From: a virus
Length of the DNA: 40,429 bases
Strand: one strand, 5' to 3'
IMG/VR virus record: IMGVR_UViG_3300008450_000112
Coordinates: 1-40,429 of that record
Shown: piece by piece, positions 1 to 34,325 of the stretch
Layout of the letters: each line of letters begins with the position of its first letter
Numbering within the stretch: the first letter of the stretch is position 1
Program-made: the position numbers and the translations under genes
The notes under the pieces: generated by a model
Database searches by the model: none
What the model saw: only the letters and a program-made list of their open reading frames with translations
Told to the model about the DNA's origin: nothing

Positions 1-114
1 GAAGCCTCAACAGTTGGAGACATTGCAACCATCACAGAACTCACGGATCAAGGCGAGCCGTTGGGTATGGAAGAACAAACTAGCGCGGAAGGAACAACTA
101 CCGCCTGAAGGTGA
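1..114. repeat. 114-bp terminal direct repeat, left copy
   Basis: These bases are identical to 40316-40429. The repeat lies inside coding sequence shared by the end of terS and the start of terL. A physical genome end here would cut both genes. The simplest reading is an assembly overlap showing that the genome is circular or circularly permuted, not a true packaged terminal repeat. Confidence 0.95.
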
Positions 115-1372: not shown

Positions 1373-1917
1373 TGGCTGACAATTACAACACAATAATTGA
1401 TCAAGGCTCTGACTGGTTTCGCAATTTCTTGTACACACAGCCTGCAACAATTACAAATGCAGTAGGCAACGGCACAACTGTTACATACACCGCAGAAAAC
1501 GGATTTAGTGCAGGGCAGACTGTTTACATTGAAGGCATCATGCCTAGCCAATACAACTTAGGCAATGTAACAATTGCTTCACGCACCTCAACACAATTTA
1601 CAGTTACTAATTCTGCTACGGGCTTGTACATTCAAGGTGGAGACGCATTAAGCGCAGTGGACATTACTGGTTACACAGCAACAATGCAGTTGCGCTCTTT
1701 ACCCAATGATCCAATTGCAGTTTTAACACTTACACAGGCAAGCGGCATTACAATTGATGGGCCTAGCGGAACTCTTGCAGTACGAGCAACAGCGGCACAA
1801 ACGGCGGCAATAATTGCAGGCCCGTATTATTATGATTTAGAGATAACATCACCTACTGGTGTGAAAACACGGCTTGTTCAGGGTGAATTAAATGTAAATG
1901 CAGAGGTGACAAGATGA
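1372..1917 (+). CDS. Fibre-associated beta-sandwich protein with inserted domain
   Basis: A virion protein of 181 residues, probably part of a fibre or baseplate adaptor. The C-terminal half (about 95-181) has the pattern of small phage beta-sandwich proteins of BppU-N type: GYTATMQLR, then hydrophobic strands, YYYDLEI and a closing GELNVNAEVTR. The usual first strand of this fold (IDQGSDWFRNF) is at residues 9-19. A separate domain of about 65 residues (NGFSAGQTVYIEGI, then YNLGNVTIASRT) is inserted after it. That insert resembles a small beta domain seen in other phage tail proteins. The gene overlaps terL upstream and the collagen-like gene downstream, so it is probably co-translated with both. 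Fold assignments are by eye. Confidence 0.6.
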   Translation: MADNYNTIIDQGSDWFRNFLYTQPATITNAVGNGTTVTYTAENGFSAGQTVYIEGIMPSQYNLGNVTIASRTSTQFTVTNSATGLYIQGGDALSAVDITGYTATMQLRSLPNDPIAVLTLTQASGITIDGPSGTLAVRATAAQTAAIIAGPYYYDLEITSPTGVKTRLVQGELNVNAEVTR

Positions 1918-4469
1918 CATACAACCCAAATAACTTTTTAAACAATCCAAACCCTGTTGGAACTCCCAATGTCATTGTTGTAACACCTGGCCCTATGGGG
2001 CAACAAGGCGCTCAGGGTATTCAAGGTATTTCAGGTAACTTCTCTGCTCAAGGTACGCAAGGTACACAGGGTTTACAAGGTGGCGGCTTTAATCAGGCAC
2101 AAGGAACACAGGGCTTAGAAGGCCCACAAGGATTAACTGGTGTTCAAGGTACAAATGGTTTGCAAGGTGTACAAGGCGCACAAGGCACAACAGGTATTCA
2201 AGGCCAAACTGGTATTCAAGGATCATTTGGTGTTCAAGGAATTAACGGAACACAAGGCACATCAGGAGCGCAGGGAGTTGAAGGCGTACAGGGTGCAACA
2301 GGAACACAGGGTTTAGTTGGCGTACAAGGAACTAATGGCGCGCAAGGTATTACAGGAACACAAGGAGCAACTGGTACACAGGGCTTGCTTGGTATTCAAG
2401 GTTCTATTGGCGCGCAAGGCACAACTGGTATTGATGGTGTTCAAGGCGCAACAGGAACTCAGGGCGTAACAGGAATTCAAGGCACTACAGGAACTCAGGG
2501 TGTGCAGGGCTTACTAGGTAATGTTGGAACACCTGGAACACAAGGAACAATAGGATCGCAAGGTTTAACTGGTGTGCAAGGTGCTATTGGTGATACTGGT
2601 TCACAAGGCACAACAGGAGCGCAAGGTGTTCAAGGTATTACTGGCACACAAGGTTTAACGGGTGCGCAAGGTACACAAGGAATTCAGGGCCATGACGGAA
2701 CACAGGGAACTGTTGGATCACAAGGAATTACTGGCGCACAAGGAACGATAGGCGCTCAAGGAATTGATGGAACACAGGGTTTAACAGGTGTTCAAGGATC
2801 AACGGGTGCGCAAGGTTTAACTGGTTTACAAGGTGTTACAGGCTCTCAAGGACTTGATGGAATTCAAGGAACTGTTGGAGCGCAAGGAACTCAAGGCGTA
2901 CAGGGAATTACTGGTAGCCAGGGTGTTCAGGGCTTAGATGGTATTCAAGGTGTGCAAGGTAATACTGGTGCAAGCGGTACATCATCATCTATTTTTGAGT
3001 ATGAAGCAGATACTAACTCACAAGCACCCGCACCTACCGCTGGTTACATTAGGTGGAATAACGCTACACAAATTTCTGCAACAAACATTTACATTTCTCA
3101 CTTAACAGATTTAAATGTGGACATTGATTTTCTATTAGCAAACATTAAAGATAATGACATTTTCTTCATTCAAGATAGAACTGACTCTAACAATTATCAA
3201 GAATGGGAAGTAAACGGCACACCTACATTTGTTACTAACAGTTATTTCACTTTTCCTGTAACGCTTATTGCATCAGGTGGAACAGGTACAACAAACTTTG
3301 CTAATAATGATCAAATTTCTCTTATTACTCAAAGCGTTGGTGTTCAAGGAGTTACTGGTGCGCAAGGCACGACAGGCGCGCAGGGAACTCAGGGCTTGCA
3401 GGGTGTTCAGGGAACTGAAGGTTTACAGGGAACAACTGGAACTCAAGGACTTGTTGGCGCTCAAGGTACAACTGGCGCACAAGGCATTGAAGGCTTGCAG
3501 GGTACTCAAGGAGTTCAAGGTGTAACTGGTTCTCAAGGACAAACTGGATCACAGGGCTTAGACGGTATTCAGGGAACTGTTGGCGCACAAGGTTTGACTG
3601 GATCTCAAGGTATTACTGGCACACAGGGAGCAGTAGGTGCGCAGGGCTTAGAAGGTTTGCAAGGAACTCAGGGAACTGAAGGATTGCAAGGAGTCACGGG
3701 TAGCCAGGGAACACAAGGAACGCAAGGCACACAAGGAACTCAAGGACTTGAGGGTTTGCAAGGTGTTACTGGATCTCAAGGTACTGATGGATTAAATGGT
3801 TCTCAAGGAACAACTGGTACTCAAGGTACAACTGGCACTCAGGGTATTACTGGATTGCAAGGAATTACTGGTACGCAAGGTACGCAAGGGCTTGAGGGAA
3901 TTCAGGGAACAACTGGATCTCAGGGGCTTGATGGAATTCAAGGTACTACTGGAACTCAGGGCTTAACTGGTACACAAGGAACTACTGGTGAGACTGGTAT
4001 TCAGGGAACGCAAGGTACAACTGGTATTCAGGGCGCTACTGGAACTCAAGGAACAACAGGTAGCCAGGGAACTCAAGGTACTCAGGGAGTTCAAGGAGTT
4101 CAAGGCACAATTGGTTTACAAGGTTTAACTGGAACTCAAGGAACATTGGGTACACAGGGAACTACTGGATCACTTCCTACAGTTACATTTAATGCTCAAT
4201 CAACTGCTTATCAATTGGTTGCAGGAGATGTAAATAAGTGGGTTACACAGAGCGGTACTGCAAACATTACTGTTCCTGCGGGAGTATTTAGTACTGGACA
4301 GGTTATTTATGTACAGCGTACGGGCGCAGGTGCGGTTTCTATCGTGGCAAGCGGCGTTACATTTACATCAAATGGATCTGCAAGCCCTGTATTACGCGCT
4401 CAATACAGTTCTGCATCAATTCTTTGTACAGGATCAAACACCTTTACAATTGTTGGAGACATTTCCTAA
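1914..4469 (+). CDS. Collagen-like fibre protein (G-x-Q/G-x-T repeats)
   Basis: An 851-residue fibre candidate built mainly of collagen-type Gly-X-Y triplets rich in Gln and Thr (typically GTQGTTG). Two triplet blocks, about 28-355 and 475-752, are separated by a non-collagen domain at about 357-473 that contains an EYEADTNS strand and aromatic beta segments. The C-terminal 95 residues form a beta tip ending in VGDIS and resemble the end of the protein at 22630. Collagen triplets normally form a trimeric helix, so this is probably a trimeric rod with a central knob and terminal tip. GAGGTG precedes the ATG, which overlaps the upstream stop (ATGA). Its place between terL and the portal is unusual for a fibre gene. 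It converges on minus-strand island 1. Role in adsorption is inferred. Confidence 0.8.
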   Translation: MTYNPNNFLNNPNPVGTPNVIVVTPGPMGQQGAQGIQGISGNFSAQGTQGTQGLQGGGFNQAQGTQGLEGPQGLTGVQGTNGLQGVQGAQGTTGIQGQTGIQGSFGVQGINGTQGTSGAQGVEGVQGATGTQGLVGVQGTNGAQGITGTQGATGTQGLLGIQGSIGAQGTTGIDGVQGATGTQGVTGIQGTTGTQGVQGLLGNVGTPGTQGTIGSQGLTGVQGAIGDTGSQGTTGAQGVQGITGTQGLTGAQGTQGIQGHDGTQGTVGSQGITGAQGTIGAQGIDGTQGLTGVQGSTGAQGLTGLQGVTGSQGLDGIQGTVGAQGTQGVQGITGSQGVQGLDGIQGVQGNTGASGTSSSIFEYEADTNSQAPAPTAGYIRWNNATQISATNIYISHLTDLNVDIDFLLANIKDNDIFFIQDRTDSNNYQEWEVNGTPTFVTNSYFTFPVTLIASGGTGTTNFANNDQISLITQSVGVQGVTGAQGTTGAQGTQGLQGVQGTEGLQGTTGTQGLVGAQGTTGAQGIEGLQGTQGVQGVTGSQGQTGSQGLDGIQGTVGAQGLTGSQGITGTQGAVGAQGLEGLQGTQGTEGLQGVTGSQGTQGTQGTQGTQGLEGLQGVTGSQGTDGLNGSQGTTGTQGTTGTQGITGLQGITGTQGTQGLEGIQGTTGSQGLDGIQGTTGTQGLTGTQGTTGETGIQGTQGTTGIQGATGTQGTTGSQGTQGTQGVQGVQGTIGLQGLTGTQGTLGTQGTTGSLPTVTFNAQSTAYQLVAGDVNKWVTQSGTANITVPAGVFSTGQVIYVQRTGAGAVSIVASGVTFTSNGSASPVLRAQYSSASILCTGSNTFTIVGDIS

Positions 4470-5140
4470 CGCACCCACAACATACCTACATCTGCGGTAG
4501 GGCGTAGGTTGGCTATTTTCCAACCGCCGTTTATCCATTCATCAGATGTAAGTTGATGCCAGGCGTTTAATTGATTGACATTGTTAGATTGCATGTTGCC
4601 CCACTCTTGAGGCTCTTGCAGATGGTTCACAATGTATTGCGCGGCCATTTCTCTGTAGCCCAATGTAAACAAATAATCTAACTGATCCTCATGCTGGTGC
4701 ATGGTTTCAAATGTCCACTCAAAACAAATCATGCCCCCGTAATGGCGGGTCATGCCTTTCATAACTTGCCACTCTGCACCTTCAACATCAATCTTGATCA
4801 AATCAGGATTGCCGTATGTATCTGCAAGGGTGTCAATGGTGATTGTGTTTACCTCAATCTCACGGTGAGACTTTCCTGCGTATGGCATGCGTTCATTTGT
4901 TAGCCAATCTTGGTTGAGCGAACTAAGGCCATCTTCATCTGCTTCATAGAACTTTAAGCGCTCGCCATCTTTGTCACTGACTGCCATTCTAAGAGGCACA
5001 ACATTAGGGTTGTAGATGAAGTTACCAACCAACTCTGAATAGACGCGTGGAGCGGCTTCTAAGGCTATTACACGGTATCCCTGCGCTAACCCTGCAAGCA
5101 CTGCATCACCACGATTAGCCCCAACATCAAATAGAAGCAT
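4466..5140 (-). CDS. FkbM-family SAM-dependent methyltransferase
   Basis: A 224-residue class I methyltransferase of FkbM type, a family that methylates sugar hydroxyls and natural products. The SAM-binding motif DVGANRGDAV is at residues 5-14, the acidic strand-2 end VIALEAAP at about 24-31, and the family hallmark LIKIDVEGAEW at about 114-124. The protein starts almost directly at motif I, so the N-terminus is short but domain-complete. It is last in a three-gene minus-strand operon and overlaps its upstream neighbour by 14 bases, suggesting translational coupling. Its end overlaps that of the collagen-like gene. Methylation of a phage- or host-derived glycan is the likely role; the substrate is unknown. 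Confidence 0.85.
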   Translation of the reverse strand: MLLFDVGANRGDAVLAGLAQGYRVIALEAAPRVYSELVGNFIYNPNVVPLRMAVSDKDGERLKFYEADEDGLSSLNQDWLTNERMPYAGKSHREIEVNTITIDTLADTYGNPDLIKIDVEGAEWQVMKGMTRHYGGMICFEWTFETMHQHEDQLDYLFTLGYREMAAQYIVNHLQEPQEWGNMQSNNVNQLNAWHQLTSDEWINGGWKIANLRPTADVGMLWVR

Positions 5141-5696
5141 TGCCTATCCTTTCAAGATTGTTTTGCACTGCGGCTTTGTACCCTGGATCTATGTCCATTG
5201 CATTTAAACGGCCTAGTATTTGAATACTTTCATCTTTGCGGCCAATCCACCAGGCGGCTACTGCCTTTTCAAATAGCAATACATAACTGCCTTCATAACC
5301 GACATGAACAGGAAGCGGTGAATGAAGTTGATTGTGCAATCCTATGTTTGCCCAGGTGTAGCACTCTTGCCATTGCCCTAAACGCTCATGGAACTGCGCA
5401 AGCAAGAAATAACCTTCAGGGCGGTATGGCAAATACGCAACAGCCTGCAATAAACAATTACTAACGGTTGCCTGGCGGTCATTTTGATCATCAAAACAAT
5501 GCGCGGTTTTAAGTAATGACGCATAAACCAGGGTGGGGTGTGACTCATGGCCGTATTCTGCGGTGCGCAAATAGAAAGAAACCGCTGAGGCTGTTTGGTT
5601 TTGCCTCTCATACTCCACTGCTACATCAAAATTAAGCGCTGGATTAAATGGATCTTTGGATAGTTCTACAACTAATTGCTCAATTCTCATAAGCAA
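5127..5696 (-). CDS. TPR-like helical repeat protein
   Basis: A 189-residue alpha-helical protein with TPR-type repeats. The pattern PALNFDVAVEYERQNQTASA is followed by paired helices around AEYGHESHPTLVYASLLKTA and YRPEGYFLLAQFHERLGQW. TPRs mediate protein contacts, and in glycan operons they often accompany sugar-modifying enzymes. The gene overlaps the upstream propeller gene by 17 bases and the downstream FkbM gene by 14, so the three are expressed together. No catalytic motif is visible. A scaffold for the two enzyme-like neighbours is a reasonable inference only. Confidence 0.6.
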   Translation of the reverse strand: MLMRIEQLVVELSKDPFNPALNFDVAVEYERQNQTASAVSFYLRTAEYGHESHPTLVYASLLKTAHCFDDQNDRQATVSNCLLQAVAYLPYRPEGYFLLAQFHERLGQWQECYTWANIGLHNQLHSPLPVHVGYEGSYVLLFEKAVAAWWIGRKDESIQILGRLNAMDIDPGYKAAVQNNLERIGNASI

Positions 5697-6681
5697 GGGC
5701 CTCCATAATTAGATCTTCTACTACTGCGCCAGGCACTTCAAGCACAAATGCGGCGTTATCCTGAAAACCAAAAGACACTAAAAGGTTGCCGTTATGGACT
5801 GCCGCGCCTACACAGAACTCAACGCGAGCATCTAAGAATGAAAATTCCTTACTTAGCCCCACAACATTTAATTCTTGATCCCACACAACTAAGCGGTGAC
5901 GGTAAATTGCATCTTTCTGCTTGAGGTAATTCTTAAATAGATCTACCTCATGGGTAATTGAGATGTACATACTGCCCCACCGTATGACCTGGCTAGATCC
6001 GCGCTGATCTTTAGGCGCTGGCTTTGTGTGGCGCACAAATACCTGTTCACACTCACCGCTAATGGGGTTGGCATAAACTAATTCTGTTGGCATTGTCCAT
6101 TTGATGAAGTGGTAAGGCTTATCAAGGACAGGTATCCAATTTTTCTCACAATAAGAAGCATCAGGAGCAGGTGCTTTAATACGCACACGCCTAACCTCTT
6201 TGACTGCCCAATTATCCCAGTCAATTTCAATACGGCTGTACTCCATGCGGCCTACACCGTTGGTTGTTGTATCGCGGCGCACTCCTACCAGGTAATAATC
6301 ATCTAGCCACTGCACAACGCGGCAATCTTCTTCACCCACAAACTCCCACATGGGTGTTACATCTAATACAGAAGTGTCCACTTTGGCGTGATGAGTCATT
6401 TCAAGATCATCATTAAGGCGGCATAAGTAATTAACAGTTACTAAGCGTTGATCCTTTTCAGGGTGCAGGTATGACAGTGGCCCAAAACGGCTAGGAAACT
6501 TCTGCTCATTTTCTGCATGGTACAGCGTGTAATTTACATGGCGTAAGTTCACAAGAATGTTGCCTTTGTCATCAATAAAAATTGATGGGTTCATTAGCCC
6601 TGTACCGCTAGTTAATCCGTGAGGGATTACCAGGGGCGCAAGTTTGCCACCGTGTTGAACTGCCTTCTCTACTAAGTTCAT
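5680..6681 (-). CDS. Putative beta-propeller glycan-active protein (GH43/GH130-like)
   Basis: First gene of the minus-strand operon, 333 residues. It has repeated beta-blade-like segments, each with an aromatic or acidic turn: NPSIFIDDKGNILVNLRHVN, VQWLDDYYLVGVRRD, GSSQVIRWGSMYISITHEVD and a late VSFGFQDNAAFVLEVP. This resembles five-bladed propeller proteins related to GH43/GH130 glycosidases and phosphorylases, which often act in glycosyltransferase clusters. Catalytic residues cannot be assigned confidently from sequence alone. No clear Shine-Dalgarno precedes the ATG; a TATTGT element lies 7 bases upstream on the minus strand. The FkbM and TPR neighbours support a role in making or trimming a glycan. 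Alternative: a non-enzymatic propeller. Confidence 0.5.
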   Translation of the reverse strand: MNLVEKAVQHGGKLAPLVIPHGLTSGTGLMNPSIFIDDKGNILVNLRHVNYTLYHAENEQKFPSRFGPLSYLHPEKDQRLVTVNYLCRLNDDLEMTHHAKVDTSVLDVTPMWEFVGEEDCRVVQWLDDYYLVGVRRDTTTNGVGRMEYSRIEIDWDNWAVKEVRRVRIKAPAPDASYCEKNWIPVLDKPYHFIKWTMPTELVYANPISGECEQVFVRHTKPAPKDQRGSSQVIRWGSMYISITHEVDLFKNYLKQKDAIYRHRLVVWDQELNVVGLSKEFSFLDARVEFCVGAAVHNGNLLVSFGFQDNAAFVLEVPGAVVEDLIMEALAYEN

Positions 6682-6764: not shown

Positions 6765-8612
6765 ATGGGTCTGCGTGACCGTATCGCAAGAGCATTAGCA
6801 ACTCAAGACATTGAAAAAGGCCCTAACCTGCCTGCGGGTGCTACAACAATTGGCACTGACGCACTTATGGCATCATCAGGTTTAGCAATGCAACAAACAT
6901 ACGGCAACAATGTTGCACTCCCACGCGCACCGTTTAGTTCAACAGTTCCATTTGGCCCAGGCAATCCAATTATCCCTGGTGCGATTAACCCAATTAACCC
7001 CGCTACTGGCCGCCCTGAACCGCGCCGCTATGAGTACCAGGTTGCTCAGAACATCAACATTGTTCCAACGCGTTTAGTTCCATTTACAACATTACGCGCC
7101 GCTGGTGACAGTATTGACATTTTGCGCCGTTGCATTGAAGTAACTAAATCAAAAATGAACGGCTTACAGTTTGACATTGTTCTTGGTGCAGACGCATCAG
7201 AGAAAATTGCGGCAGAGTCAGGCGGAGATCATGTGCGCGCTATGGCTAAGGCCCGCGAAAAGTACACAGATGAAATTAACCGCTTGCGTGAGTTTTGGGA
7301 AAACCCTGACAAAGCAAATGGATACACATGGAATGACTGGATCAACATTGCAATTGAGGACATTCTTGTAATTGATGCGCTTGCTATTTACCCACAACCA
7401 ACAGTAGGCGGAGATCTTTACGGTTTCCAAATTCTTGATGGCTCAACAATTAAGCCTCTTATTGATGACCGCGGTATGCGCCCAATGTCACCTAACGCGG
7501 CGTTCCAACAGATCCTTTACGGTTTCCCACGCTCAGAGTTTTCTGCAACAGAAGAAGATCCAAAGGCAGACGGTGAATTTACATCTGATCAATTGGCTTA
7601 CTTGGTTCGCAATCGCCGCTCAACAACTGTTTATGGATTTAGCCCAGTAGAGCGAGCGCTACCACTTGCTGACATTTATTTGCGCCGCCAACAATGGATC
7701 AGAGCAGAGTACACAGATGGTGTTATGCCTGAACTTATGTTTACAACTGATGAAGATTGGGGAACTAACCCTGATCTCTTGCTTGCTTATGAGCGTATTC
7801 TTAATGATGATCTCGCAGGGCAGACAGAGCAACGCAAGCGCGCTCGCCTATTGCCAAAAGGTTTAACACCTGTTGTTAATGAAGGTTATGGCGAGAAGTT
7901 CAAGGACACACTTGATGATTATTTAGTTACTTCTATTTGCGGACACTTTGGCGTACAACCATCTGAAATTGGTTTCTCACCAAAGGGCGGATTGGGTGGC
8001 GCTGGTTTCTCAGAAGGACAAGCAGAAAACGGTGAAGCGCTAGGCATTGGGCCTCTTGCTAACTGGATCTCTAAGCAACTTACAAATCTTTCTTACACAT
8101 ACTTAGGCATGCCGCGTGAACTTGAATTTAAATTGCTTACATCAGAGCGCAAAGACACAGAAGAAAATGCGCGTAAGAATGAGATTGAAGTGCGTTCAGG
8201 CGGTAAGTCAATCAATGAGCGCAGATCAGAACTTGGTTTGCCGTTGCTAGATACACCTCAAGCAGACATGCCAATTATGGTTGCAGGCTCAAGCGTTTTG
8301 TTGTTCTCACCTGATGGATTGATTGATGCGGCTAGTGCGGCAACAGCGCCAACATTAAGCGGCCCTGATGCAAAACCTGATGCGCCTACAACTCCTAATC
8401 CTCTTGAGCAGAAACCTTCTACTGAAGTACAACCTGAAGAAGATGAAGTGACTGAAGTAAAAGCATTTATGAAATGGGCGGCTAAAGGTAAGCGCGCAAG
8501 ATTATTTGAATTCAAATCACTTGATCCAATTGTGGGAGATGCGCTCAACCGTTGTGCTTTTGATGGTGATTTAGATACTGCGCGAGCGCTGGCTAAGGCT
8601 TATCTAACATGA
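6765..8612 (+). CDS. Portal protein
   Basis: A 615-residue protein expected to form the dodecameric DNA gate at one capsid vertex and to bind terminase. The central region has the usual portal pattern: DILRRCIEVTKSKMNGLQFD (about 112-131), RLREFWENPDK, a conserved block around PVERALPLADIYLRRQQW, and a helical clip/crown region with FGVQPSEIGFSPKGG. The C-terminal 90 residues are Pro/Glu-rich and probably flexible. Start is the ATG behind AAGGGAG. It overlaps the MuF-type gene by four bases (ATGA), the usual portal-minor head protein arrangement, and lies about 5.4 kb from terL because fibre genes and island 1 intervene. Confidence 0.85.
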   Translation: MGLRDRIARALATQDIEKGPNLPAGATTIGTDALMASSGLAMQQTYGNNVALPRAPFSSTVPFGPGNPIIPGAINPINPATGRPEPRRYEYQVAQNINIVPTRLVPFTTLRAAGDSIDILRRCIEVTKSKMNGLQFDIVLGADASEKIAAESGGDHVRAMAKAREKYTDEINRLREFWENPDKANGYTWNDWINIAIEDILVIDALAIYPQPTVGGDLYGFQILDGSTIKPLIDDRGMRPMSPNAAFQQILYGFPRSEFSATEEDPKADGEFTSDQLAYLVRNRRSTTVYGFSPVERALPLADIYLRRQQWIRAEYTDGVMPELMFTTDEDWGTNPDLLLAYERILNDDLAGQTEQRKRARLLPKGLTPVVNEGYGEKFKDTLDDYLVTSICGHFGVQPSEIGFSPKGGLGGAGFSEGQAENGEALGIGPLANWISKQLTNLSYTYLGMPRELEFKLLTSERKDTEENARKNEIEVRSGGKSINERRSELGLPLLDTPQADMPIMVAGSSVLLFSPDGLIDAASAATAPTLSGPDAKPDAPTTPNPLEQKPSTEVQPEEDEVTEVKAFMKWAAKGKRARLFEFKSLDPIVGDALNRCAFDGDLDTARALAKAYLT

Positions 8613-10243
8613 TTGAGGGCGCTCTCAAGGCAGATGGGCGCTTAGCGGCAAAGAACGCAGTGAAGATTAGGGCGGCACTGCACCAGGTAACAGACTTCAA
8701 ACGAGTCTTTAACAAATACCAGGAAACAATGCCACAGCCAACGGATAACCCTACGCAAGATCGTGTGCGCGCTCGCTCATGGGTTTTGCTAAATGTTTAC
8801 CTTAATGATGAACCCCTACGCAATGCCGTTATGCAAGCCTGGGCGGAGGCTTATGTTTTGGGCGCTGTTGCCGCTAGTGAATGGTTAGAAAAAACCCGCA
8901 TAGCAAACAAGGCTGATGACATTGAAATCAATTGGGATAAATGGCGGCCAGGAGATACGGCTACCGCTTTAAGAATTACTCCAACTGAAGGTTTTAGCAA
9001 ATACTTGCGAACAGTAAACGCAGATAGTTATTTTAAAAATTTTAACAAAGAAACTGTTACAAATTTAGGCACTGCTCTTTCTGACGCAATAGCCGCTGGT
9101 TTAGATGCTGAAAGTGCCGCTGTAATGATTGGGCGGCATGTAGCAAACCCTAGCCGCGCTTTGACTATTGCAATTACTGAGCAGAACCGCGCTATGTCGT
9201 TTTCAAGCATTGAGCGTTACAAAGAGGCTGGCTTGCAAAAGATGGAATGGGCCGTGTCTGACCCGTGTGACATTTGCGCAAAAAATGATGGGCAAGTAAT
9301 TCTTATTGGGCAAACATTTGCATCAGGAGACGCGCAACCCCCTGCTCACCCGCATTGCCGTTGCGTATTACTACCTGTAATTCCTGGCATGGAAGATGAT
9401 TTGACAGGCGGAACAGTTACAAGCCCAACAATTGATGCTGACGGCGCAATTGCAAATGAACCTTTCACTCCTGGTGTTGTGCCACAAGGCGAGTGGACAT
9501 TAGTAACAGAAGATAGATGGGTAGAACGCCAGGAGGCTATTCGTTTACAACGCGGGCTAGGGCCTGCAAATGAAAATCATTTGCGTATTATCCGTGATCA
9601 AGTTGCAGATGCTCAAGCAATTTATGAACGCGGGCCTAACATTGTTGTTTTAGGTAATGATGTTACAACAGTAACAGAAGAACACATGAAACAATTTATG
9701 AGAAATTTTGATCTTGCTTATGAAAAATTACCTGAATGGCGAAGGGTAAGCCCTGACGGTTCTTTAAGAGGCTATTCTTTAATTATCAATAATAAAGACC
9801 GTTACCGTTCTTCTTTGGCTTATACATACATAGGACATGACTCTATTTGGTTCTCCCCTGGTGATGTTATTTCTTCATTAAACCCACCTAAAGATTGGGC
9901 GGGCTGGTTTATGCCTGCGGCTAATAGTGTTTCTGAAAATCTTTACACAATTATGCATGAGTTAGGCCACACCACAGATAGTTATGTAAATGATAATAAA
10001 CGCGGGTATGTAAGAAGCCTTCTGACGCGTAAATACAAACAATTATTTTCAAAGTACAGCCGTAAAAATACTAAAGAAACTTACGCGGAAATTTTTGCTC
10101 AATGGGGATTGGGTGAAAAAAATGCATTAACTGAAGCCTATGCAGAAGCATTTGGTTGGGATTTATCTGCCGCAGAGTATTACGAGAAGTTTGGTGAATT
10201 TGATCGTTGGAAGCCTAGTATGAGACCGTCAGGGGTGCGTTAA
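8609..10243 (+). CDS. MuF/SPP1 gp7-like minor head protein with C-terminal HExxH domain
   Basis: A 544-residue two-part protein. The N-terminal half is the minor head (MuF) domain, with its Cys/His signature CDICAKNDG and PPAHPHCRCVLLPV (about 222-256). This family sits inside the head near the portal and can be ejected with DNA. The C-terminal half (about 310-544) carries HELGH (450-454), a zinc-metallopeptidase HExxH motif. Glutamates downstream at 490 and 494 or in YAEAFG could be the third ligand. MuF proteins are known carriers of variable C-terminal toxin or enzyme domains, so a packaged protease effector is plausible. The gene overlaps the portal gene by four bases. Confidence 0.8.
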   Translation: MIEGALKADGRLAAKNAVKIRAALHQVTDFKRVFNKYQETMPQPTDNPTQDRVRARSWVLLNVYLNDEPLRNAVMQAWAEAYVLGAVAASEWLEKTRIANKADDIEINWDKWRPGDTATALRITPTEGFSKYLRTVNADSYFKNFNKETVTNLGTALSDAIAAGLDAESAAVMIGRHVANPSRALTIAITEQNRAMSFSSIERYKEAGLQKMEWAVSDPCDICAKNDGQVILIGQTFASGDAQPPAHPHCRCVLLPVIPGMEDDLTGGTVTSPTIDADGAIANEPFTPGVVPQGEWTLVTEDRWVERQEAIRLQRGLGPANENHLRIIRDQVADAQAIYERGPNIVVLGNDVTTVTEEHMKQFMRNFDLAYEKLPEWRRVSPDGSLRGYSLIINNKDRYRSSLAYTYIGHDSIWFSPGDVISSLNPPKDWAGWFMPAANSVSENLYTIMHELGHTTDSYVNDNKRGYVRSLLTRKYKQLFSKYSRKNTKETYAEIFAQWGLGEKNALTEAYAEAFGWDLSAAEYYEKFGEFDRWKPSMRPSGVR

Positions 10244-10254
10244 AGGAGATGACA

Positions 10255-11208
10255 ATGAAAGAACCAAACCTAGATGAAGTTGGTGTAATCAATGATTACG
10301 CCGCTATGCCCAAATTTGAATTGCAACAAAGGGCTATTTTTGGTGACGCTAAAGCAGAACGCATTTACTTTGAACGCTATGGCAAAGGTAACAAAAGCGT
10401 TGATGGTGACATTGAAAAGAACAACCCAAACCGTGACCCTAAAGGCCGTTTTACTTTTGGATCAGGTGGCCCGCAGGCTGGTGGCGGTGGAAACGCTGGC
10501 GGTGGAGAAGGCGGAGAAAGCGCAGGCGGCGGAGGCGGAGGCGCTGGAGAGCCTGGTGAAGGCAAAGACATAACTTCTGAATTAGGCAGAGATTATGGAC
10601 AAGTTTCAGAAACCAAAAGAGGTGCAGAACTTAGAGCCAAAGACATGTCTCCTGAAACAAGGGGTGATCCAACATTACAAGACATTGCCCACAGACAAGG
10701 TTTTGATGGTAAAGCAGAAATGGTTGATCAAGAGGCTTTTGATCAAATTGTTGCTGAAGGAGGAACTGTTACTTATCGTGGCGTTACTGATTATTATGAT
10801 AGTTATAGCGCAAATGATGCTAAATACATTTCAGGAGAAACTCAAATAAGCGAACAATTTGCGGAAGGCCCTTATTTTGGCGGCATAGGCGGCTACGGAA
10901 GCGGCACTTATACATCATCAGATGTGAGCGTTGCGCAACATTATGCTTTTGAAGATGGCGCAAAAGGGGGAGTAATAACAATGGTAGTTAAACCTAATGC
11001 TAAAATCGCAACACCTCAACAATGGCAAGCCGCTAGAACAGCGGCAAGAGAAGGCAAAGGTGGCTTTATGGGGGCTAATAATGAAGGAAGAATTTTAGCG
11101 GCTCAAGGATTTGATGGTTTTCGCATAGCCTCAAAAGATGTGGATCATTTTTCTAATCAATTTGTCGTTGTATTAAATAGAAAAGCAGTGGCGGTGTTGA
11201 AAAAATGA
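10255..11208 (+). CDS. Putative ADP-ribosyltransferase-like head-associated protein
   Basis: A 317-residue protein. AAAGGAG sits six bases before the ATG at 10255, so I prefer this to the ATG at 10249. Residues 50-105 contain NPNRDPKGRFTFGSGG, a basic RDPxGRF element often seen beside MuF-type modules, followed by a Gly-rich linker. The C-terminal 150 residues read like an ART fold: YRG (Arg175), GTYTSSDVSVAQHYA (about 217-231) as the central strand, E277 with a GFDGF strand, and a closing NQFVVVLN (301-308). Packaged phage ARTs such as T4 Alt modify host proteins on entry. Here the target is unknown, and the fold call needs structure prediction. Confidence 0.55.
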   Translation: MKEPNLDEVGVINDYAAMPKFELQQRAIFGDAKAERIYFERYGKGNKSVDGDIEKNNPNRDPKGRFTFGSGGPQAGGGGNAGGGEGGESAGGGGGGAGEPGEGKDITSELGRDYGQVSETKRGAELRAKDMSPETRGDPTLQDIAHRQGFDGKAEMVDQEAFDQIVAEGGTVTYRGVTDYYDSYSANDAKYISGETQISEQFAEGPYFGGIGGYGSGTYTSSDVSVAQHYAFEDGAKGGVITMVVKPNAKIATPQQWQAARTAAREGKGGFMGANNEGRILAAQGFDGFRIASKDVDHFSNQFVVVLNRKAVAVLKK

Positions 11209-11408
11209 ACTTAAATAATCCTTTAGTTTCACGCGCAATAGCGTCACTTATGAAGCAATTAAGCCCTAAAGATAGGTATGACTTGAGTGGCTTAACTCTT
11301 AAATTTACGGCTTTAAGTCAATTGCCTGGCAAATGGCAGGTTGCCATAAAAGCGGAAATGGCTAAAAACGCTGTAACTAATGCAAGGCGAGATTTGCCAA
11401 CAGATTAA
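11205..11408 (+). CDS. Small basic hypothetical protein
   Basis: A 67-residue protein starting at an ATG that overlaps the upstream stop (ATGA). It is predicted mainly helical, Lys/Arg-rich, with no cysteine or recognisable motif. Tight coupling to the ART-like gene suggests a partner, for instance an immunity protein, a chaperone, or a small head protein. There is no direct evidence for any of these. Confidence 0.6.
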   Translation: MNLNNPLVSRAIASLMKQLSPKDRYDLSGLTLKFTALSQLPGKWQVAIKAEMAKNAVTNARRDLPTD

Positions 11409-11479: not shown

Positions 11480-12955
11480 ATGGCTAATCTAACAACAACT
11501 TCCTACTTCAGTATTGAGAAGGCTGACCGTAATGCAGACGGCACAATGACCGTTTACGGTAAGGCAACAGATGACTCACTAGACATTGATCAACAGATTT
11601 GTGACGGCGATTGGCTAAAGCGCGCAATGCCTGCCTGGTTTAAGTCAGGTGGAAACATTAGAGAACAACACAGCCAAATTGCCGCAGGCGTGGCAAAAGA
11701 GTATGAAGCAAAGGCTGATGGACATTACATTGGCGTTTTGGTTGTAGATCCTGTTTCAGTTAAGAAGGTAGATGCTGGCGTACTCAAGGGGTTTTCAGTA
11801 GGTATCAAAAACCCACGCGTTGTACGCGATAGCAAAGCGGCAAATGGCCGCATCATTGATGGGCAGATTGTAGAAATTTCTTTAGTGGATCGCCCTGCCA
11901 ACCCCAACTGCCAGTTAGTTTTGGCTAAGTCTGTTGATGGTGAAAAGGACTTGGTTCAGGTAGAAGAATTACATGAAAAAGAAGAAACAGAAAATAATAA
12001 TCCAATACAATCTGACAATAACTCTGAGAAAGAAAGTGACGCAATGGACACATCAACCGTTTCAGTACCTAAGTCTATTGTGGGCGATCTTGTTAAATTT
12101 GATAAGGCTCAGTTTGAAGCGGCGCGTGAAGCGTTGGCTAACCTTATTTCAATTGAAGCGCAAGAAATGAAGGAAGGTCACAATGAACTTTCTTCTCTTG
12201 CACACCTATTAGAAGCCGTATCTCATCTCCATGCTTGGTATGAAGGTGAAGAAGCAGAGGGAGAAGTAATGGAAGAAGTAGAGTTAGAAATGTCTAGCAA
12301 GGCAGATGATGAAAAAGAAATGATGCCTGCTAAGGGTGAGACTAAAGACGCGTTTATGAAGCGTTGTAAAGAAGCAGGAAAATCTGATGACTATGGAATG
12401 AAGTGTTGGAATAAGTACATGGAGAAATCAAACGCGGCTACTGACATGACACCAACAGCGGAAACAGGTGCAAACCTAGACACCGCAACAATTGTTCCTC
12501 CTGCGGACACACCTAAATCTGCGGAAGCAGAAGAAGCACCAGTTGCAGAAGAAGTAGTTGCTGAAGAAGCACCTACGGCGGAAGAAGTTACAGAAGAAGT
12601 TTCTGTTGATGAAAACTCAACAGAGAAGTTAGAAGCCATAGTAGAAGAAGTGGTGGAGAAAGCAACAAAGGCTCTCAAATCAGAGATTGCCAACCTTGTG
12701 TCTGCAAAAGAGGCGGCTGAGGTGCGCGCAATGAGTTTGGAAACTGAGTTAGCAACCGCTAAATCTTTGGCTCTAGGTGGTGGCCCAAAGCGAACAGTAA
12801 GCCCAATAGATGTGAAAACAACTAATGACTTGCTAACTAAGGCCGCTGTTTACAAAGAAAAAGCAAAAGCAACAACAGACATAACACTTGCTAAGGGTTA
12901 CAAAATACTTGCAGATGAATACATTGCAGAGTATGAAAAAACCCTTGATAAGTAA
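11480..12955 (+). CDS. Prohead protease fused to scaffold-like region
   Basis: A 491-residue fusion. Residues 1-150 match the HK97-type (U35) capsid maturation protease: YGKATDDSLDIDQQI, His64 in NIREQHS, Ser106 in KGFSVG, and the conserved closing strand IVEISLVDRPANP. His64 and Ser106 are the likely catalytic pair. From about 160 on the sequence becomes very acidic (runs of EEAPVAEE and EEVSVDEN) and helical, like an internal scaffold. It sits directly upstream of the capsid gene, where the protease and scaffold normally lie, and no separate scaffold gene is present. Auto-release of the scaffold after assembly is the usual mechanism in related fusions. GAGG precedes the ATG. Confidence 0.85.
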   Translation: MANLTTTSYFSIEKADRNADGTMTVYGKATDDSLDIDQQICDGDWLKRAMPAWFKSGGNIREQHSQIAAGVAKEYEAKADGHYIGVLVVDPVSVKKVDAGVLKGFSVGIKNPRVVRDSKAANGRIIDGQIVEISLVDRPANPNCQLVLAKSVDGEKDLVQVEELHEKEETENNNPIQSDNNSEKESDAMDTSTVSVPKSIVGDLVKFDKAQFEAAREALANLISIEAQEMKEGHNELSSLAHLLEAVSHLHAWYEGEEAEGEVMEEVELEMSSKADDEKEMMPAKGETKDAFMKRCKEAGKSDDYGMKCWNKYMEKSNAATDMTPTAETGANLDTATIVPPADTPKSAEAEEAPVAEEVVAEEAPTAEEVTEEVSVDENSTEKLEAIVEEVVEKATKALKSEIANLVSAKEAAEVRAMSLETELATAKSLALGGGPKRTVSPIDVKTTNDLLTKAAVYKEKAKATTDITLAKGYKILADEYIAEYEKTLDK

Positions 12956-12984: not shown

Positions 12985-14670
12985 ATGGCACTTACACCTC
13001 CAAAGGTGGCCGATCTATTCAGTGATGCAACTCCTAAAGAAGCCGCAGAACGCTTTGAGGAATACTCAGGCGAACTCTCAAAGAGTCTTTCACGCGCTTC
13101 ACATGTTCCAGGACAAGCACCACAGGCAGATCCAATCTCAACACTTGAAGCACTAGCGGCTAACAAGTCACTTACAGGTGACGCTATGAACGGTTTGAAT
13201 ACTGCTCTAGCGGCTCAGCGCATGGCAATGCAGGACATTCAGAAGGAAATCACACTTACTTCTCCTTTGTCATCTTCATTTGCGGCGTTTGACCTTGAAG
13301 CACCTGCAAAGTTGCTCACACCACGCCCAACTCCACTCCGCAACCGTATTCCCCGTAAAAAGGGTGTTGGTACTTCTCACCGTGTAAAGCGTATTCTTGG
13401 TTACACAGGTACAGGTACAGGCGGACAAGGACAGATTTGGCCTGGTATTTCAGAAAACACACAGAATAACTTTGCTGGTGGCGGTTCTACTCCACTTGAG
13501 TTAATCCGTGGCCCACAGATCTCTTACACAGCAGATGATCTAATCTTGCCTTACAACTCATACTCACTATCTGATCAGGTTTCATTTGATGCAAACTTCT
13601 CAGGTATGGGCTATGAGGATCTACGCCAGTTATCATCAACTTCTACTCTATACGCAACAATGCTTATGGAAGAACGCATGATGCTAATGGCTCGCGGAAC
13701 TGCATCAGGTTACTCAGGAGCGATTGCCGCTCCAACAGCACTTGTTGCATCATCTCCTGCGGCAACAGGTTCACAGACTGCACTAGCGGCGGCTACTTAC
13801 TACATCTACATCACCGCAGACGCAGGTATTTCTGCCAACGGTTTTGGTGAGTCAATCGTTTCAGCCGTTGCATCAGAAACAGTTGCATCAGGTGATGTTC
13901 TTTCTGTTTCCTTCACAGGATCAGTTGGCGCACTTGGTTACAATGTTTATGTTGGAACTGCAACAGGAACAGCAAACTGCAAGTTGGTTGGAACAGTAAA
14001 GGGCGGAACAACAGTTATTGTTCAGGGCGCTTCTGCAACAAACCTTCCTGCAAATAACTTTGCGTTTAGCACAAGTGGCCCTGCCGCATCACGCGCTAAC
14101 GCTGATACATCTGCTTACGCAACTGGTTATGACGGAATTCTTCCAACAGTTCTAGGCCCTAACACTGGCTTCAACAACGCAATCAACGCGGCGTTCTCAA
14201 CATCTAACCCAGGTGTGGAATTCCAAGATGTTTTTGCTGAGTTGTACCAGAATGTAAAGGCTGATCCTGACATGGTTCTCATGAACGGAAATGACCGTAA
14301 GCAACTATCTGATGCAATCAAGGGTGGATCAACTGCTAACTATCGTCTAGTTATCAACAACCCAGGCGCAGATGGAACTACATACGGTTCTATTGTTACA
14401 GGACTTCAGAATGAAGTAACAGGCAAGGCAGTGGACATCATGGTTCACCCGTGGCTGAACTCAGGTGTTGCACCTGTTCTTTCATTCACATTGCCAATTC
14501 CTGATACACAGGTATCTGATGTATGGGCGAACTTCTTGGTACAGGACTACATGGGTATCCAGTGGCCAGTAACTCAGTTCACTTATGACTTCTCAACATA
14601 CTTCCGCGGAACTTTCTTCTGCACCGCTCCTGCATGGAACGGCGCAGTTTCAGGAATTCAAACAGCGTAA
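12985..14670 (+). CDS. Major capsid protein with Ig-like insertion domain
   Basis: A 561-residue HK97-fold capsid candidate, placed just after the protease-scaffold gene and followed by a hairpin. The N-terminal 100 residues are helical and could be a delta-like domain removed by the protease. The core includes a basic segment RNRIPRKKGVG, LILPYNSYSLSDQVSFDA, EERMMLMARG and a late DVWANFLVQDYMG. An insert at about 248-365 looks like an Ig/fibronectin-type domain (strands around TYYIYITAD, LSVSFTG, YNVYVGTATG). It probably projects from capsomers and could bind cell surfaces or polysaccharide. Without it the protein is about 440 residues, larger than a minimal HK97 shell protein. Confidence 0.85.
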   Translation: MALTPPKVADLFSDATPKEAAERFEEYSGELSKSLSRASHVPGQAPQADPISTLEALAANKSLTGDAMNGLNTALAAQRMAMQDIQKEITLTSPLSSSFAAFDLEAPAKLLTPRPTPLRNRIPRKKGVGTSHRVKRILGYTGTGTGGQGQIWPGISENTQNNFAGGGSTPLELIRGPQISYTADDLILPYNSYSLSDQVSFDANFSGMGYEDLRQLSSTSTLYATMLMEERMMLMARGTASGYSGAIAAPTALVASSPAATGSQTALAAATYYIYITADAGISANGFGESIVSAVASETVASGDVLSVSFTGSVGALGYNVYVGTATGTANCKLVGTVKGGTTVIVQGASATNLPANNFAFSTSGPAASRANADTSAYATGYDGILPTVLGPNTGFNNAINAAFSTSNPGVEFQDVFAELYQNVKADPDMVLMNGNDRKQLSDAIKGGSTANYRLVINNPGADGTTYGSIVTGLQNEVTGKAVDIMVHPWLNSGVAPVLSFTLPIPDTQVSDVWANFLVQDYMGIQWPVTQFTYDFSTYFRGTFFCTAPAWNGAVSGIQTA

Positions 14671-24944: not shown

Positions 24945-25324
24945 TGGCACATTACGCATTTCTTGATGAAAACAACATTGTTACTGAAGTAATTGTTGGG
25001 CGCAATGAAGATGAAATTGTAGATGGTATTTCTAATTGGGAAATCGCTTACGCAGAAGTACGCGGTCAGGTATGTAAAAGAACTTCTTACAACACAAGCG
25101 CAGGAGTGCATGCAAAGGGCGGAGTTCCATTCCGTAAAAATTATGCAGGCATTGGCATGATTTTTGATGAAGAAAGAGATGCTTTTTATGCACCTCAACC
25201 ATTTCCTTCATGGATACTTAATGAAGAAACTTGCATTTGGGAAGCGCCTATTTCCATGCCTGAACATGATCCCGCAATTGAATTTCCTTTATGGAATGAA
25301 GCAACTCAATCATGGGAATTATGA
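24944..25324 (+). CDS. Conserved aquatic-phage fibre-region protein
   Basis: A 126-residue protein of a type I recognise from many marine and freshwater phages, usually next to fibre genes. Features are AHYAFLDENNIVTEVIVGRN at the start, a central RKNYAGIGMIFDEERDAFY and the closing PSWILNEETCIWEAP. Function is unknown. Position at the end of the fibre block suggests a fibre tip or attachment role. It overlaps the upstream stop (TAATG) and converges with the minus-strand gene that follows, their ends overlapping by six bases. Confidence 0.6.
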   Translation: MAHYAFLDENNIVTEVIVGRNEDEIVDGISNWEIAYAEVRGQVCKRTSYNTSAGVHAKGGVPFRKNYAGIGMIFDEERDAFYAPQPFPSWILNEETCIWEAPISMPEHDPAIEFPLWNEATQSWEL

Positions 25325-26041
25325 GTAAGTTTTTTTAGACCAAATGTTTTTTATGTAATGATTAACAATTGTGCCATTAAAATTTTTATCTTCTAATTTT
25401 TGGTATTCCCCATTTTTAAGGTATGAGTATTCTGCTTTCCAATCAGAACGCTTAAATGGAACAACCTGAACCATAGGTGTGCCTTTTTCTAGTATGCCTT
25501 CAAAATCATTTGTAAACCAAACAGGAGGCAGTATTTCAAGATTGCTTCTATCGGTATCAATAACGGCTGGTATTGCTTGAACACCAGTTTGACGATAACC
25601 AAAAGGTTGTGTAATTAAACATGAATAACCTTTAGGTGTAATTATTCTCCATTTATTAAGAAACTTAAATACTTGTGAATTAAAACCAATAGGTGTTTCT
25701 ACTTCTGCTCTTGCTTGCATACCATGTTCTTGAAACACTGCTTCTGTTGTTCGCCAGGTAATAATTTTGTTTTCACCTTCATTTTTTATTTGAACATCTG
25801 ACCACAATGGAATGATGTAACCTGTTGTAAGAGCGTCCAACATAGGAACACATTTTTTAGGGCCTGCATTTGACACGCGCTCTCTAACAATCAATTTATT
25901 GCCTTTAGGGTTATCTTCACTTTTGGTGTAAGGAGTCATAGCCTTCCACCATTCAGGGATTGCTTGAGTTGCAGGGTATGGGCGTTCTGCTACTTCCCAC
26001 CCGTATTCATCTCTTGCTTCAAACTTAATTATTTGTTTCAT
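25319..26041 (-). CDS. Conserved phage protein of unknown function (possibly DUF6065 family)
   Basis: A 240-residue minus-strand gene behind TATTAGGAGG. It has IPEWWKAMTPY near the N-terminus, KKCVPMLDALTTGYIIPLWS in the middle, a KFLNKWRIITPKGYSCLIT core and VWFTNDFEGILEKGTPMVQV later. I recognise this as a family found in aquatic phages and tentatively link it to DUF6065, which has no established function. The KGTPMVQVVPF stretch suggests a beta-rich pocket. It is alone on the minus strand within the tail genes, converging on a fibre-region gene, like a moron insertion. Confidence 0.5.
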   Translation of the reverse strand: MKQIIKFEARDEYGWEVAERPYPATQAIPEWWKAMTPYTKSEDNPKGNKLIVRERVSNAGPKKCVPMLDALTTGYIIPLWSDVQIKNEGENKIITWRTTEAVFQEHGMQARAEVETPIGFNSQVFKFLNKWRIITPKGYSCLITQPFGYRQTGVQAIPAVIDTDRSNLEILPPVWFTNDFEGILEKGTPMVQVVPFKRSDWKAEYSYLKNGEYQKLEDKNFNGTIVNHYIKNIWSKKTYS

Positions 26042-34002: not shown

Positions 34003-34325
34003 ATTGGGAAGAAGCAGAATGTAAGCGTCAAGAAATTTACACTGATCTTTTTTATGACATAGAAGAACAAAGATCTGTTGATGCTTATGACCACATTAAT
34101 TCAGTGCGGGCTGTTTGCGTTTCTTGTCCTATTTGGAAAGATTGTTTAACCTACGCGTTTCAAAATGAAAATTACGGAATGTGGGGAGCAATGACTAGCC
34201 AGGAGCGGGCAAGCATTGATGAACCGCTCAAGTATCCAAATCAGCGCATCAGAGGACTTAGATCATTACAACAAATGGGAATTTCACTAGACATGATTAA
34301 AGAATGTAAGGGAGGCGCAAAATGA
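33981..34325 (+). CDS. whiB: WhiB-family iron-sulfur transcription regulator
   Basis: A 114-residue protein starting at TTG with AGGAG seven bases upstream. Cys14, Cys46, Cys49 and Cys55 form the C...C-x2-C-x5-C cluster site, and GMWGA (66-70) is the turn that normally reads G-V/I-W-G-G. The basic C-terminus (YPNQRIRGLRSLQQ) follows. WhiB proteins are confined to actinobacteria and their phages; phage copies can redirect host sigma factor A or block host WhiB function. This is the best host marker in the window. Confidence 0.92.
   Translation: MPKYTEVNWEEAECKRQEIYTDLFYDIEEQRSVDAYDHINSVRAVCVSCPIWKDCLTYAFQNENYGMWGAMTSQERASIDEPLKYPNQRIRGLRSLQQMGISLDMIKECKGGAK

What the first reader, a model, noticed from the sequence alone, without database searches (positions are those of the whole stretch)
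8609..11208. Two candidate effector enzymes in the head operon
The MuF protein carries HELGH in its C-terminal domain and the next gene looks like an ADP-ribosyltransferase with a RDPxGRF element and Gly-rich linker. MuF proteins are known to carry variable toxin domains, and T4 packages an ART. This phage may inject a protease plus an ART at infection. The small coupled gene at 11205 could be an immunity or chaperone partner.
Basis: partly seen in the sequence, partly recalled or inferred. Interest (0 to 1): 0.75.

Follow-up and report, generated by a model that had tools for sequence, protein, structure and literature searches.

The report
Swappable enzyme cargo in phage head
Next to its portal gene this phage carries two enzyme-like modules, a zinc-protease-like domain and an ADP-ribosyltransferase-like domain with its own small partner gene, and closely related phages carry different enzymes at the same spot, which suggests interchangeable proteins packed in the virus head for use on the host cell.

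Summary
MuF (8609-10243) ends in a predicted gluzincin metallopeptidase domain (pLDDT 88.7; lethal factor catalytic domain Z 9.5, Pro-Pro endopeptidase Z 8.7; HExGH is followed by S-x-Y-x6-E-x-x-A-E in 50 of 50 distinct domains). The next gene (10249-11208) is a short head-operon segment, NPNRDPKGRF, a Gly-rich linker, and an ART-fold domain (pLDDT 89.7). The 67-aa gene at 11205 overlaps it by ATGA.

Among 22 non-identical MuFs whose portals are at least 93% identical to this one there are 8 kinds of MuF C-terminus. The ART domain occurs on MuF, on this carrier, or on a third carrier; the carrier segment stands alone as a 47-aa ORF in two close relatives. After 26 of 27 distinct ARTs of these phages a small protein starts in ATGA overlap (26 of 28 with one bacterial-contig relative).

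This is a variant of known MuF polymorphic toxins: a second cargo slot, in an apparently complete 40.3-kb genome without a detected integrase. Presence in virions, injection, catalysis and immunity are not shown. The canonical ART glutamate position is not conserved, so the reaction is open.

The parts
6765..8612 (+). portal protein (conserved core next to the cassette)
   Evidence: phrog_2662 E 1.6e-56; PF04860 35.1 bits, below its cut-off of 39.1
8609..10243 (+). MuF minor head protein with C-terminal peptidase domain (slot 1)
   Evidence: PF04233 46.9 bits at residues 153-254
9065..9370 (+). MuF domain, residues 153-254
9554..10240 (+). predicted gluzincin peptidase region, residues 316-544
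   Evidence: model pLDDT 88.7, pTM 0.88; lethal factor catalytic domain Z 9.5, PPEP-3 Z 8.7; profile against PDB: lethal factor E 3.6e-6, Pro-Pro endopeptidase E 0.0016
9956..9970 (+). HELGH (H450, E451, H454); Y483, E490 and E494 lie downstream
   Evidence: 38 of 38 rows of A1 (HExxH there by construction); downstream Y and E kept in 50 of 50
10249..11208 (+). carrier plus ART-fold protein (slot 2); probable start 10255
10249..10389 (+). conserved carrier (anchor) segment, residues 1-47
   Evidence: stand-alone 47-aa ORF in L016 and L017, sharp break after it; 46-68 aa ORFs in further relatives
10423..10452 (+). NPNRDPKGRF motif, shared in this or near form by slot-2 proteins with unrelated C-termini
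10459..10566 (+). Gly-rich linker
10567..11205 (+). ART-fold domain, residues 107-319; R177, Y221, D289, LNR 309-311
   Evidence: model pLDDT 89.7, pTM 0.86; ART-type matches in PDB and BFVD; conservation
11205..11408 (+). 67-aa small partner, ATGA overlap with the ART gene
   Evidence: same position after 26 of 27 distinct ARTs of these phages; dN/dS 0.17-0.25
11480..12955 (+). putative head maturation protease, downstream border of the cassette
   Evidence: phrog_80 E 1.5e-6; best PHROG match, phrog_21715, has no known function
12985..14670 (+). probable major capsid protein
   Evidence: phrog_13692 (unknown function) E 6.1e-80; tblastn E 3e-14 to a gene annotated major head protein in Alicyclobacillus phage MMB025

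Best explanation
The locus is a hypervariable cargo cassette of the virion head. Slot 1 is the C-terminus of the portal-associated MuF protein, here a lethal-factor/PPEP-like zinc peptidase domain. Slot 2 is the next gene: a short head-operon carrier segment, NPNRDPKGRF, a flexible Gly-rich linker, then an ART-fold domain. The carriers place a few cargo enzymes in the capsid; the enzymes enter the next host with the DNA and act on host proteins or defences, while the 67-aa partner keeps the ART harmless in the producing cell. Shown: domains, predicted folds, conserved residues, swapping, and ART-partner linkage. Inferred: encapsidation, injection, catalysis, target, neutralisation.
For: MuF domain next to the portal. 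Peptidase fold and residues. ART fold: by title, 48 of the 50 second-look PDB rows shown are diphtheria/exotoxin A/cholix-type toxins, tankyrases or ParT, the other two being a cyanophage pre-ejectosome protein (first) and the catalytic domain of an insecticidal protein; in BFVD, PolyVal ARTs and a MuF fusion protein of Microbacterium phage Schubert. Eight slot-1 types among 22 non-identical MuFs with portal at least 93% identical (two further rows were cut and dropped). The ART occurs fused to MuF, on this carrier, or on a third carrier in L089. Carrier stand-alone with a sharp junction in L016 and L017. Silent divergence to L002: portal dS 0.27, MuF N-terminus 0.51, peptidase 1.21, ART 1.05, so the cargo seems to have its own history (one pair). 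Partner after 26 of 27 distinct ARTs of these phages; ATGA-overlap ORF of 50-100 aa after 27 of 30 ART-bearing MuFs, 5 of 48 others, of which 0 of 16 short ones. Known MuF toxins have this anatomy (PMC5576092; PMC11699363).
Against: No virion, injection, activity or toxicity data. Peptidase Pfam score is below the curated cut-off (16.6 against 27.4 bits). ART PDB matches are weak one by one (Foldseek E at best 4.3e-3, Z at most 7.3). The canonical third catalytic position is Q304 here and takes 11 different letters in 23 rows. No small gene directly follows the peptidase-bearing MuF itself. L009 has a relative of this ART without a partner, and so has the remote L168 of a Verrucomicrobia contig. 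MuFs with other cargo are also often followed by short overlapping ORFs of unrelated sequence (L022, L097, L098, L143, L147), so such an ORF is not peculiar to the ART.
Confidence: 0.72

Rival explanations
1. The peptidase is not a host-directed effector but a processing enzyme that trims MuF or its cargo, releasing the ART.
For: In 34 of 34 non-identical proteins with both, the peptidase lies before the ART; Iyer et al. 2017 propose zincin processing of polyvalent proteins (abstract passage in PMC5512222).
Against: In this phage nothing follows it in the same protein; it is replaced by unrelated domains in phages with near-identical portals and stands without a fused ART in 24 of 78 distinct complete MuFs, this one included.
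Confidence: 0.3
2. The ART acts in the producing cell late in infection (for example against superinfecting phages or in lysis control) and is not packaged; the small protein is an antitoxin.
For: It lies among the head genes, so is presumably expressed late, with its own coupled partner.
Against: The same ART domain is fused to MuF, a head protein, in 23 of the 27 distinct ARTs (all but this phage, L002, L003 and L089; two of the 23, L110 and L140, are ORFs cut at their 5' end, so the fusion is inferred from the matching end), and the carrier segment sits in the head operon even without the ART.
Confidence: 0.12
3. The 67-aa protein is an adaptor or chaperone for loading the ART into the head rather than an immunity protein.
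For: Consistent pairing and translational coupling fit either role.
Against: Nothing here separates the two; by analogy, small proteins next to the tested MuF toxins Bxa and Apk2 neutralise them (PMC11699363, passages; PMC12226406, abstract).
Confidence: 0.3
4. Both domains are catalytically dead decorations of head proteins.
For: The canonical ART catalytic glutamate position is not conserved.
Against: Peptidase residues are kept in 50 of 50; dN/dS well below 1; ART D289 and the LNR asparagine kept in 22 of 23 rows and its arginine in 23 of 23.
Confidence: 0.08

Closest known systems
MuF polymorphic toxins (Jamet et al. 2017, PMC5576092; abstract and sections 5, 9, 13 read)
   Same: MuF protein directly after the portal gene; variable C-terminal enzymes including metallopeptidases and ARTs; small ORF after toxin-bearing MuFs.
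   Different: Here a second cargo gene on a separate carrier; the small ORF follows the ART gene, not MuF; no integrase found, while that survey found no known toxin domain on MuFs of virulent phages.
Bxa, MuF-ART toxin of a Bacteroides prophage (PMC11699363, passages)
   Same: ART fused to MuF in the head region, neutralised by adjacent small proteins.
   Different: Bxa modifies arginines; one of its two immunity proteins is an ADP-ribosyl hydrolase, the other a binding inhibitor. No sequence comparison with Bxa was made here.
MuF-VIP2 fusions of Microbacterium phages, some lytic (PMC7302621, passages)
   Same: MuF fused to an ART, also in phages without features of temperate life (Cluster EJ).
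   Different: VIP2 belongs to the R-S-E clade (PMC5512222); here the ART shows no such signature and sits in a separate gene.
Polyvalent-protein ARTs and zincins; ART-PolyVal (PMC5512222, passages and section 9)
   Same: Predicted injected ART and zincin domains; BFVD structural matches to proteins named PolyVal ART.
   Different: Two small head-operon genes instead of one large multidomain protein; strand-1 residue is R, not H.
Phage T4 Alt (as described in PMC5512222 and PMC9503650, passages)
   Same: Works-like model: head-packaged ART injected with DNA.
   Different: R-S-E clade; no cognate small partner that I recall.
Lethal-factor/Pro-Pro endopeptidase type (M34, ATLF) peptidases
   Same: HExxH, downstream Tyr and Glu, fold.
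   Different: About 10-13% identity in the structural alignments; below the Pfam cut-off; attached to a phage head protein.

Membership tests
MuF polymorphic toxin | MuF domain in the gene directly after the portal | tested here: met
   PF04233 46.9 bits against 29.6; portal 6765-8612 upstream
MuF polymorphic toxin | Variable C-terminal domain on a conserved N-terminal part | tested here: met
   8 slot-1 types among 22 non-identical MuFs with portal at least 93% identical
MuF polymorphic toxin | Small downstream ORF (reported for 89.4% of MuF toxin genes, so not obligatory) | tested here: inconclusive
   MuF is followed by the 319-aa ART gene; the small ORF follows that gene
MuF polymorphic toxin | Toxic C-terminal activity neutralised by an immunity protein | not testable with these tools
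   needs expression experiments
MuF polymorphic toxin | Temperate phage (a reported correlate, not a defining feature) | tested here: not met
   0 of 18 records match PF00589, 0 of 18 match PF00239; exact 114-base terminal repeat in the window; no integrase among matches of 50 window ORFs in PHROGs. No dedicated repressor search was made.
ATLF / M34-like gluzincin peptidase | HExxH plus downstream Tyr and Glu | tested here: met
   50 of 50 distinct domains
ATLF / M34-like gluzincin peptidase | Fold | tested here: met
   Z 9.5 to lethal factor over 166 residues, 3.7 A; PPEP-3 Z 8.7; aminopeptidase-type gluzincins close behind, Z 8.3-9.2. So gluzincin fold is clear, the narrower assignment rests on sequence as well
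Pfam ATLF (PF07737) | Score over the curated cut-off | tested here: not met
   16.6 bits for the window, 21.1 and 22.1 for two relatives, against 27.4; so called ATLF-like, not filed in that Pfam family
ART superfamily | ART fold | tested here: met
   PDB scores individually weak, but the matches agree
Tox-ART-HYD2 clade | Histidine in strand 1 | tested here: not met
   Arg in 23 of 23 aligned rows (R177 here; most rows were picked with an RG filter, but 32 of 33 HMM-found ARTs also show it); so not filed in HYD2
Tox-ART-HYD2 clade | Tyrosine in strand 2 | tested here: met
   Y221; motif in 33 of 33 HMM-found distinct ARTs
Tox-ART-HYD2 clade | Aspartate in strand 5 | tested here: inconclusive
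   D289 in 22 of 23 rows, but just before the strand I count as fourth; the position before the next strand (Q304) varies
R-S-E ARTs (Alt/VIP2) | ExE signature | tested here: not met
   no conserved Glu column in A2; no PF03496 match listed for the window protein at E up to 1

The most novel reading that the evidence does not exclude
A modular loading system in virulent phages: a short carrier segment with an NPNRDxKGRF tag and flexible linker delivers exchangeable enzymes into the head beside MuF, so that cargo modules move between MuF, this carrier and others, together with their own cognate small protein; lytic phages would then carry combinatorial sets of injected effectors as polymorphic toxin systems do, but for host take-over or counter-defence.
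Probability: 0.4. Interest if true: 0.75.

Novelty: new variant of a known kind. Interest (0 to 1): 0.62.

Why it matters
Phages with nearly the same portal (and, in the six cases where it could be compared, capsid genes 83-98% identical to this one) differ in which enzymes they carry beside the portal, so this group offers a natural set of swaps for asking what injected proteins do in the first minutes of infection. It also extends MuF-type cargo to a second gene with a candidate loading tag, gives an unnamed ART type with a closely linked small partner, and adds to the evidence that MuF cargo is not confined to temperate phages.

Tried and rejected
Plain ADPrib_exo_Tox or ART-PolyVal assignment of the ART gene by sequence: rejected, no such match listed in Pfam at E up to 1; PHROGs and NCBIfam list none. 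Annotated phages: no tblastn match for the ART gene; for MuF, 102 records, and in the 40 listed no match reaches past residue 338, so the peptidase is not covered. Homology of the 67-aa protein to the other partners: an HMM of 22 other partners gives L089 E 2 and does not list the window protein at E up to 5; profile comparison gives E 3.6e-4 but probability 37%; left open. The stand-alone peptidase as an essential head-assembly protease: rejected, since it is absent or replaced in close relatives. Prokaryotic genomes: scanned once, with an alignment of MuF-fused relatives (A3), not with the window ART; one relative, on a Verrucomicrobia contig (L168, 28% identity); its ART-like end keeps GYDAI and LNR and has no overlapping small ORF. 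Literature: searches listed no paper on this phage group or on a second tagged cargo gene; only the listed titles were seen, in an open-licence library.

Limits: the portal and capsid scans were capped at 80 loci each, of 276 and at least 598 confirmed. Class labels YRAV, DUF3626-like, ExE-ART, PEP-L/W are mine, by HMM or regular expression; there a portal match of 200 aligned residues sufficed, and MuFs counted as distinct if their first 400 residues were not identical. Its slot-2 column missed L092 and L006, whose slot-2 genes were seen. L034 (typed PEP-W) is cut at a contig end. In one search one of the 27 ART-bearing hits (L037) has an unrelated 54-aa ORF, and one counted as a miss (L189) is cut at a contig end. 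Counts treat related phages as separate, so the Fisher values overstate the strength. Habitat and host are not known from these calls.
Full report
What is there. MuF (8609-10243) overlaps the end of the portal gene, has a significant MuF domain at residues 153-254 (PF04233, 46.9 bits), and HELGH at residues 450-454. The next gene (10249-11208, probable start 10255) has NPNRDPKGRF at residues 59-68, a Gly-rich stretch and a C-terminal domain of about 210 residues. The 67-aa gene at 11205 overlaps it by ATGA.

The peptidase domain. Against the PDB, a profile of 38 relatives matches the lethal factor catalytic region (E 3.6e-6) and Pro-Pro endopeptidases (E 0.0016). The model of residues 316-544 has mean pLDDT 88.7; Foldseek's best PDB match is PPEP-3 (E 4.1e-3), and the second look gives lethal factor Z 9.5 and PPEP-3 Z 8.7, with aminopeptidase-type gluzincins at similar Z. 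Y483, E490 and E494 fall in columns invariant over 38 rows; the rows were picked with an HExxH filter. Independently, S-x-Y-x6-E-x-x-A-E follows HExGH in 50 of 50 distinct HMM-found domains, and the only HMM hit without HExGH is an ORF cut at a contig end. It scores below the Pfam ATLF cut-off, so I call it ATLF-like. Equating Y483 and E490 with the catalytic Tyr and zinc-ligand Glu of lethal factor rests on the printed alignment and recall.

The ART domain. No family library used names it. The model has pLDDT 89.7 and pTM 0.86. The 50 rows shown of Foldseek's PDB list are PE-like toxins, PARP-type enzymes and a cyanophage A4 pre-ejectosome protein, best E 4.3e-3, none at E up to 0.001. In the second look that cyanophage protein leads (Z 7.3), then diphtheria-type and exotoxin-A-type enzymes, tankyrases and ParT. 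In BFVD, 20 matches have E up to 0.001, among them PolyVal ARTs, ART-PolyVal-like proteins and a capsid protease-MuF fusion of Microbacterium phage Schubert. Single scores are moderate, but they agree. Asp289 is kept in 22 of 23 aligned relatives. Arg177 and Tyr221 are invariant in those 23, partly because most rows were picked by that motif; among 33 distinct HMM-found ARTs the RG motif is seen in 32 and the G-x-G-x-Y motif in 33. The usual catalytic Glu position is Q304 and takes 11 letters in 23 rows. So the fold is well supported, the reaction is not; the Arg at the first position keeps it out of the HYD2 clade as defined in PMC5512222 (section read).

Swapping. Scans with the portal and capsid proteins gave 80 loci each, capped. 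Among 22 non-identical MuFs (this one included; two cut rows dropped) whose portal is at least 93% identical, the C-terminus is of eight kinds: peptidase of two types, peptidase plus ART, ART alone, a related ART type, an ExE-type ART, a YRAV domain and a DUF3626-like domain. Pfam places the ExE type in ADPrib_exo_Tox in L012 (E 1.3e-15) and in the more distant L143 (E 9.1e-20); L147 is below the cut-off. In the pair window-L002 the portal has dS 0.27 but the peptidase 1.21 and the ART 1.05, which fits exchange by recombination; one pair only.

Two slots. The first 46 or so residues of the ART gene form a 47-aa ORF in L016 and L017, whose DNA closely matches this phage up to that point and then diverges at once. 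Other relatives have the segment as a 46-68 aa ORF. Slot-2 proteins with NPNRDxKGRF or a near form carry either this ART (window, L002, L003) or the YRAV domain (for example L004, L005, L008, L009, L010, L012, L014). In L089 the ART follows the same kind of motif but on a different N-terminal domain. In L009 an ART relative (30% identity) is fused to MuF while slot 2 carries YRAV. The motif was found in no other of 119 plus-strand window ORFs of at least 40 aa.

The partner. Of 83 ART-HMM hits 33 are distinct. Of these, 27 are members from this phage group with a complete end in LNR or LDR; in 26 of the 27 a small protein starts in ATGA overlap (24 stand-alone, one cut by a contig end, one in frame with the protease in L089). 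The exception, L009, also lacks the conserved Asp. The other six were set aside: L037 and L070 with another tail type, L061 cut, L183 broken, and the remote L168 and L201. L168 does end in LNR and has no overlapping small ORF; counting it gives 26 of 28. Among 78 distinct complete MuFs an ATGA-overlap ORF of 50-100 aa follows 27 of 30 with ART, 3 of 24 with peptidase only, 2 of 8 others and 0 of 16 short ones; the three after peptidase-only MuFs look like carrier proteins, and several MuFs with other cargo are followed by short overlapping ORFs of other sequence. Partners of the MuF-fused ARTs form one loose family; this phage's partner is not clearly related by sequence.

The phage. The window ends in an exact 114-base direct repeat of its start, as a complete genome of about 40.3 kb would; in 16 of 16 other long relatives with a match to the last gene, that gene lies directly before the terminase gene (the 18th record, G014, has no match). 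PF00589 and PF00239 match 0 of 18 records each, and no integrase was among PHROG matches of 50 window ORFs. It is probably virulent; repressors were not searched for as such. A WhiB-like gene suggests an actinobacterial host (WhiB's restriction to Actinobacteria is recalled).

What is known. MuF toxins with metallopeptidases and ARTs and small downstream ORFs are in print (PMC5576092, sections read); Bxa is a tested MuF-ART with two immunity proteins (PMC11699363, passages); Apk2 is another tested MuF toxin (PMC12226406, abstract); ARTs near head genes or fused to MuF are surveyed in PMC9503650 (passages); MuF-VIP2 fusions, also in lytic phages, are in PMC7302621 (passages). Not seen in the searches made are the second tagged slot, this ART type with its linked partner, and this extent of swapping among phages with near-identical portals.

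Verdict. A new variant of a known kind, with good genomic support and no experimental support yet.

Noticed in passing
window 1-114 and 40316-40429: Exact 114-base direct terminal repeat: the record looks like a complete genome of about 40.3 kb.
   Followed up: yes
window 33981-34325: WhiB-like transcription factor (phrog_472 E 1.7e-14), pointing to an actinobacterial host.
   Followed up: no
window 4466-6681, minus strand: Three minus-strand genes between the collagen-like fibre and the portal: FkbM methyltransferase (E 1e-17), TPR protein, and a very weak GH130 match (E 0.081); genes of similar size lie there in L007, L009, L011, L013 and L017. Possibly a glycan module.
   Followed up: no
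window 1914-4469: Collagen-like tail fibre, 851 aa.
   Followed up: no
window 11480; L016:2489; L089:4094: Many relatives have an extra N-terminal domain of about 107 aa on the protease gene (RNNAKRGLELR ... WLLWGGDAG) that this phage lacks; in L089 it is the N-terminal carrier of the ART gene.
   Followed up: partly
L022:8845-10743, L038:8845-10389, L068:5984: MuF C-termini with a DUF3626-like domain (Pfam E 1.8e-4 in L022, 0.16 in L038, both below cut-off; L068 by eye), a possible further cargo class.
   Followed up: no
L029:8845-10095 and slot-2 genes of L004, L008, L012: YRAV domain (YRAVPE..NPGDWVTLSP) found in both slots; no Pfam match for it in L029 or L008: a swappable cargo domain without a name here.
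   Followed up: partly
window 25319-26041, minus strand: A minus-strand gene with DUF6065 similarity (just below the cut-off) and phrog_7084 E 2.5e-44 inside the tail region.
   Followed up: no
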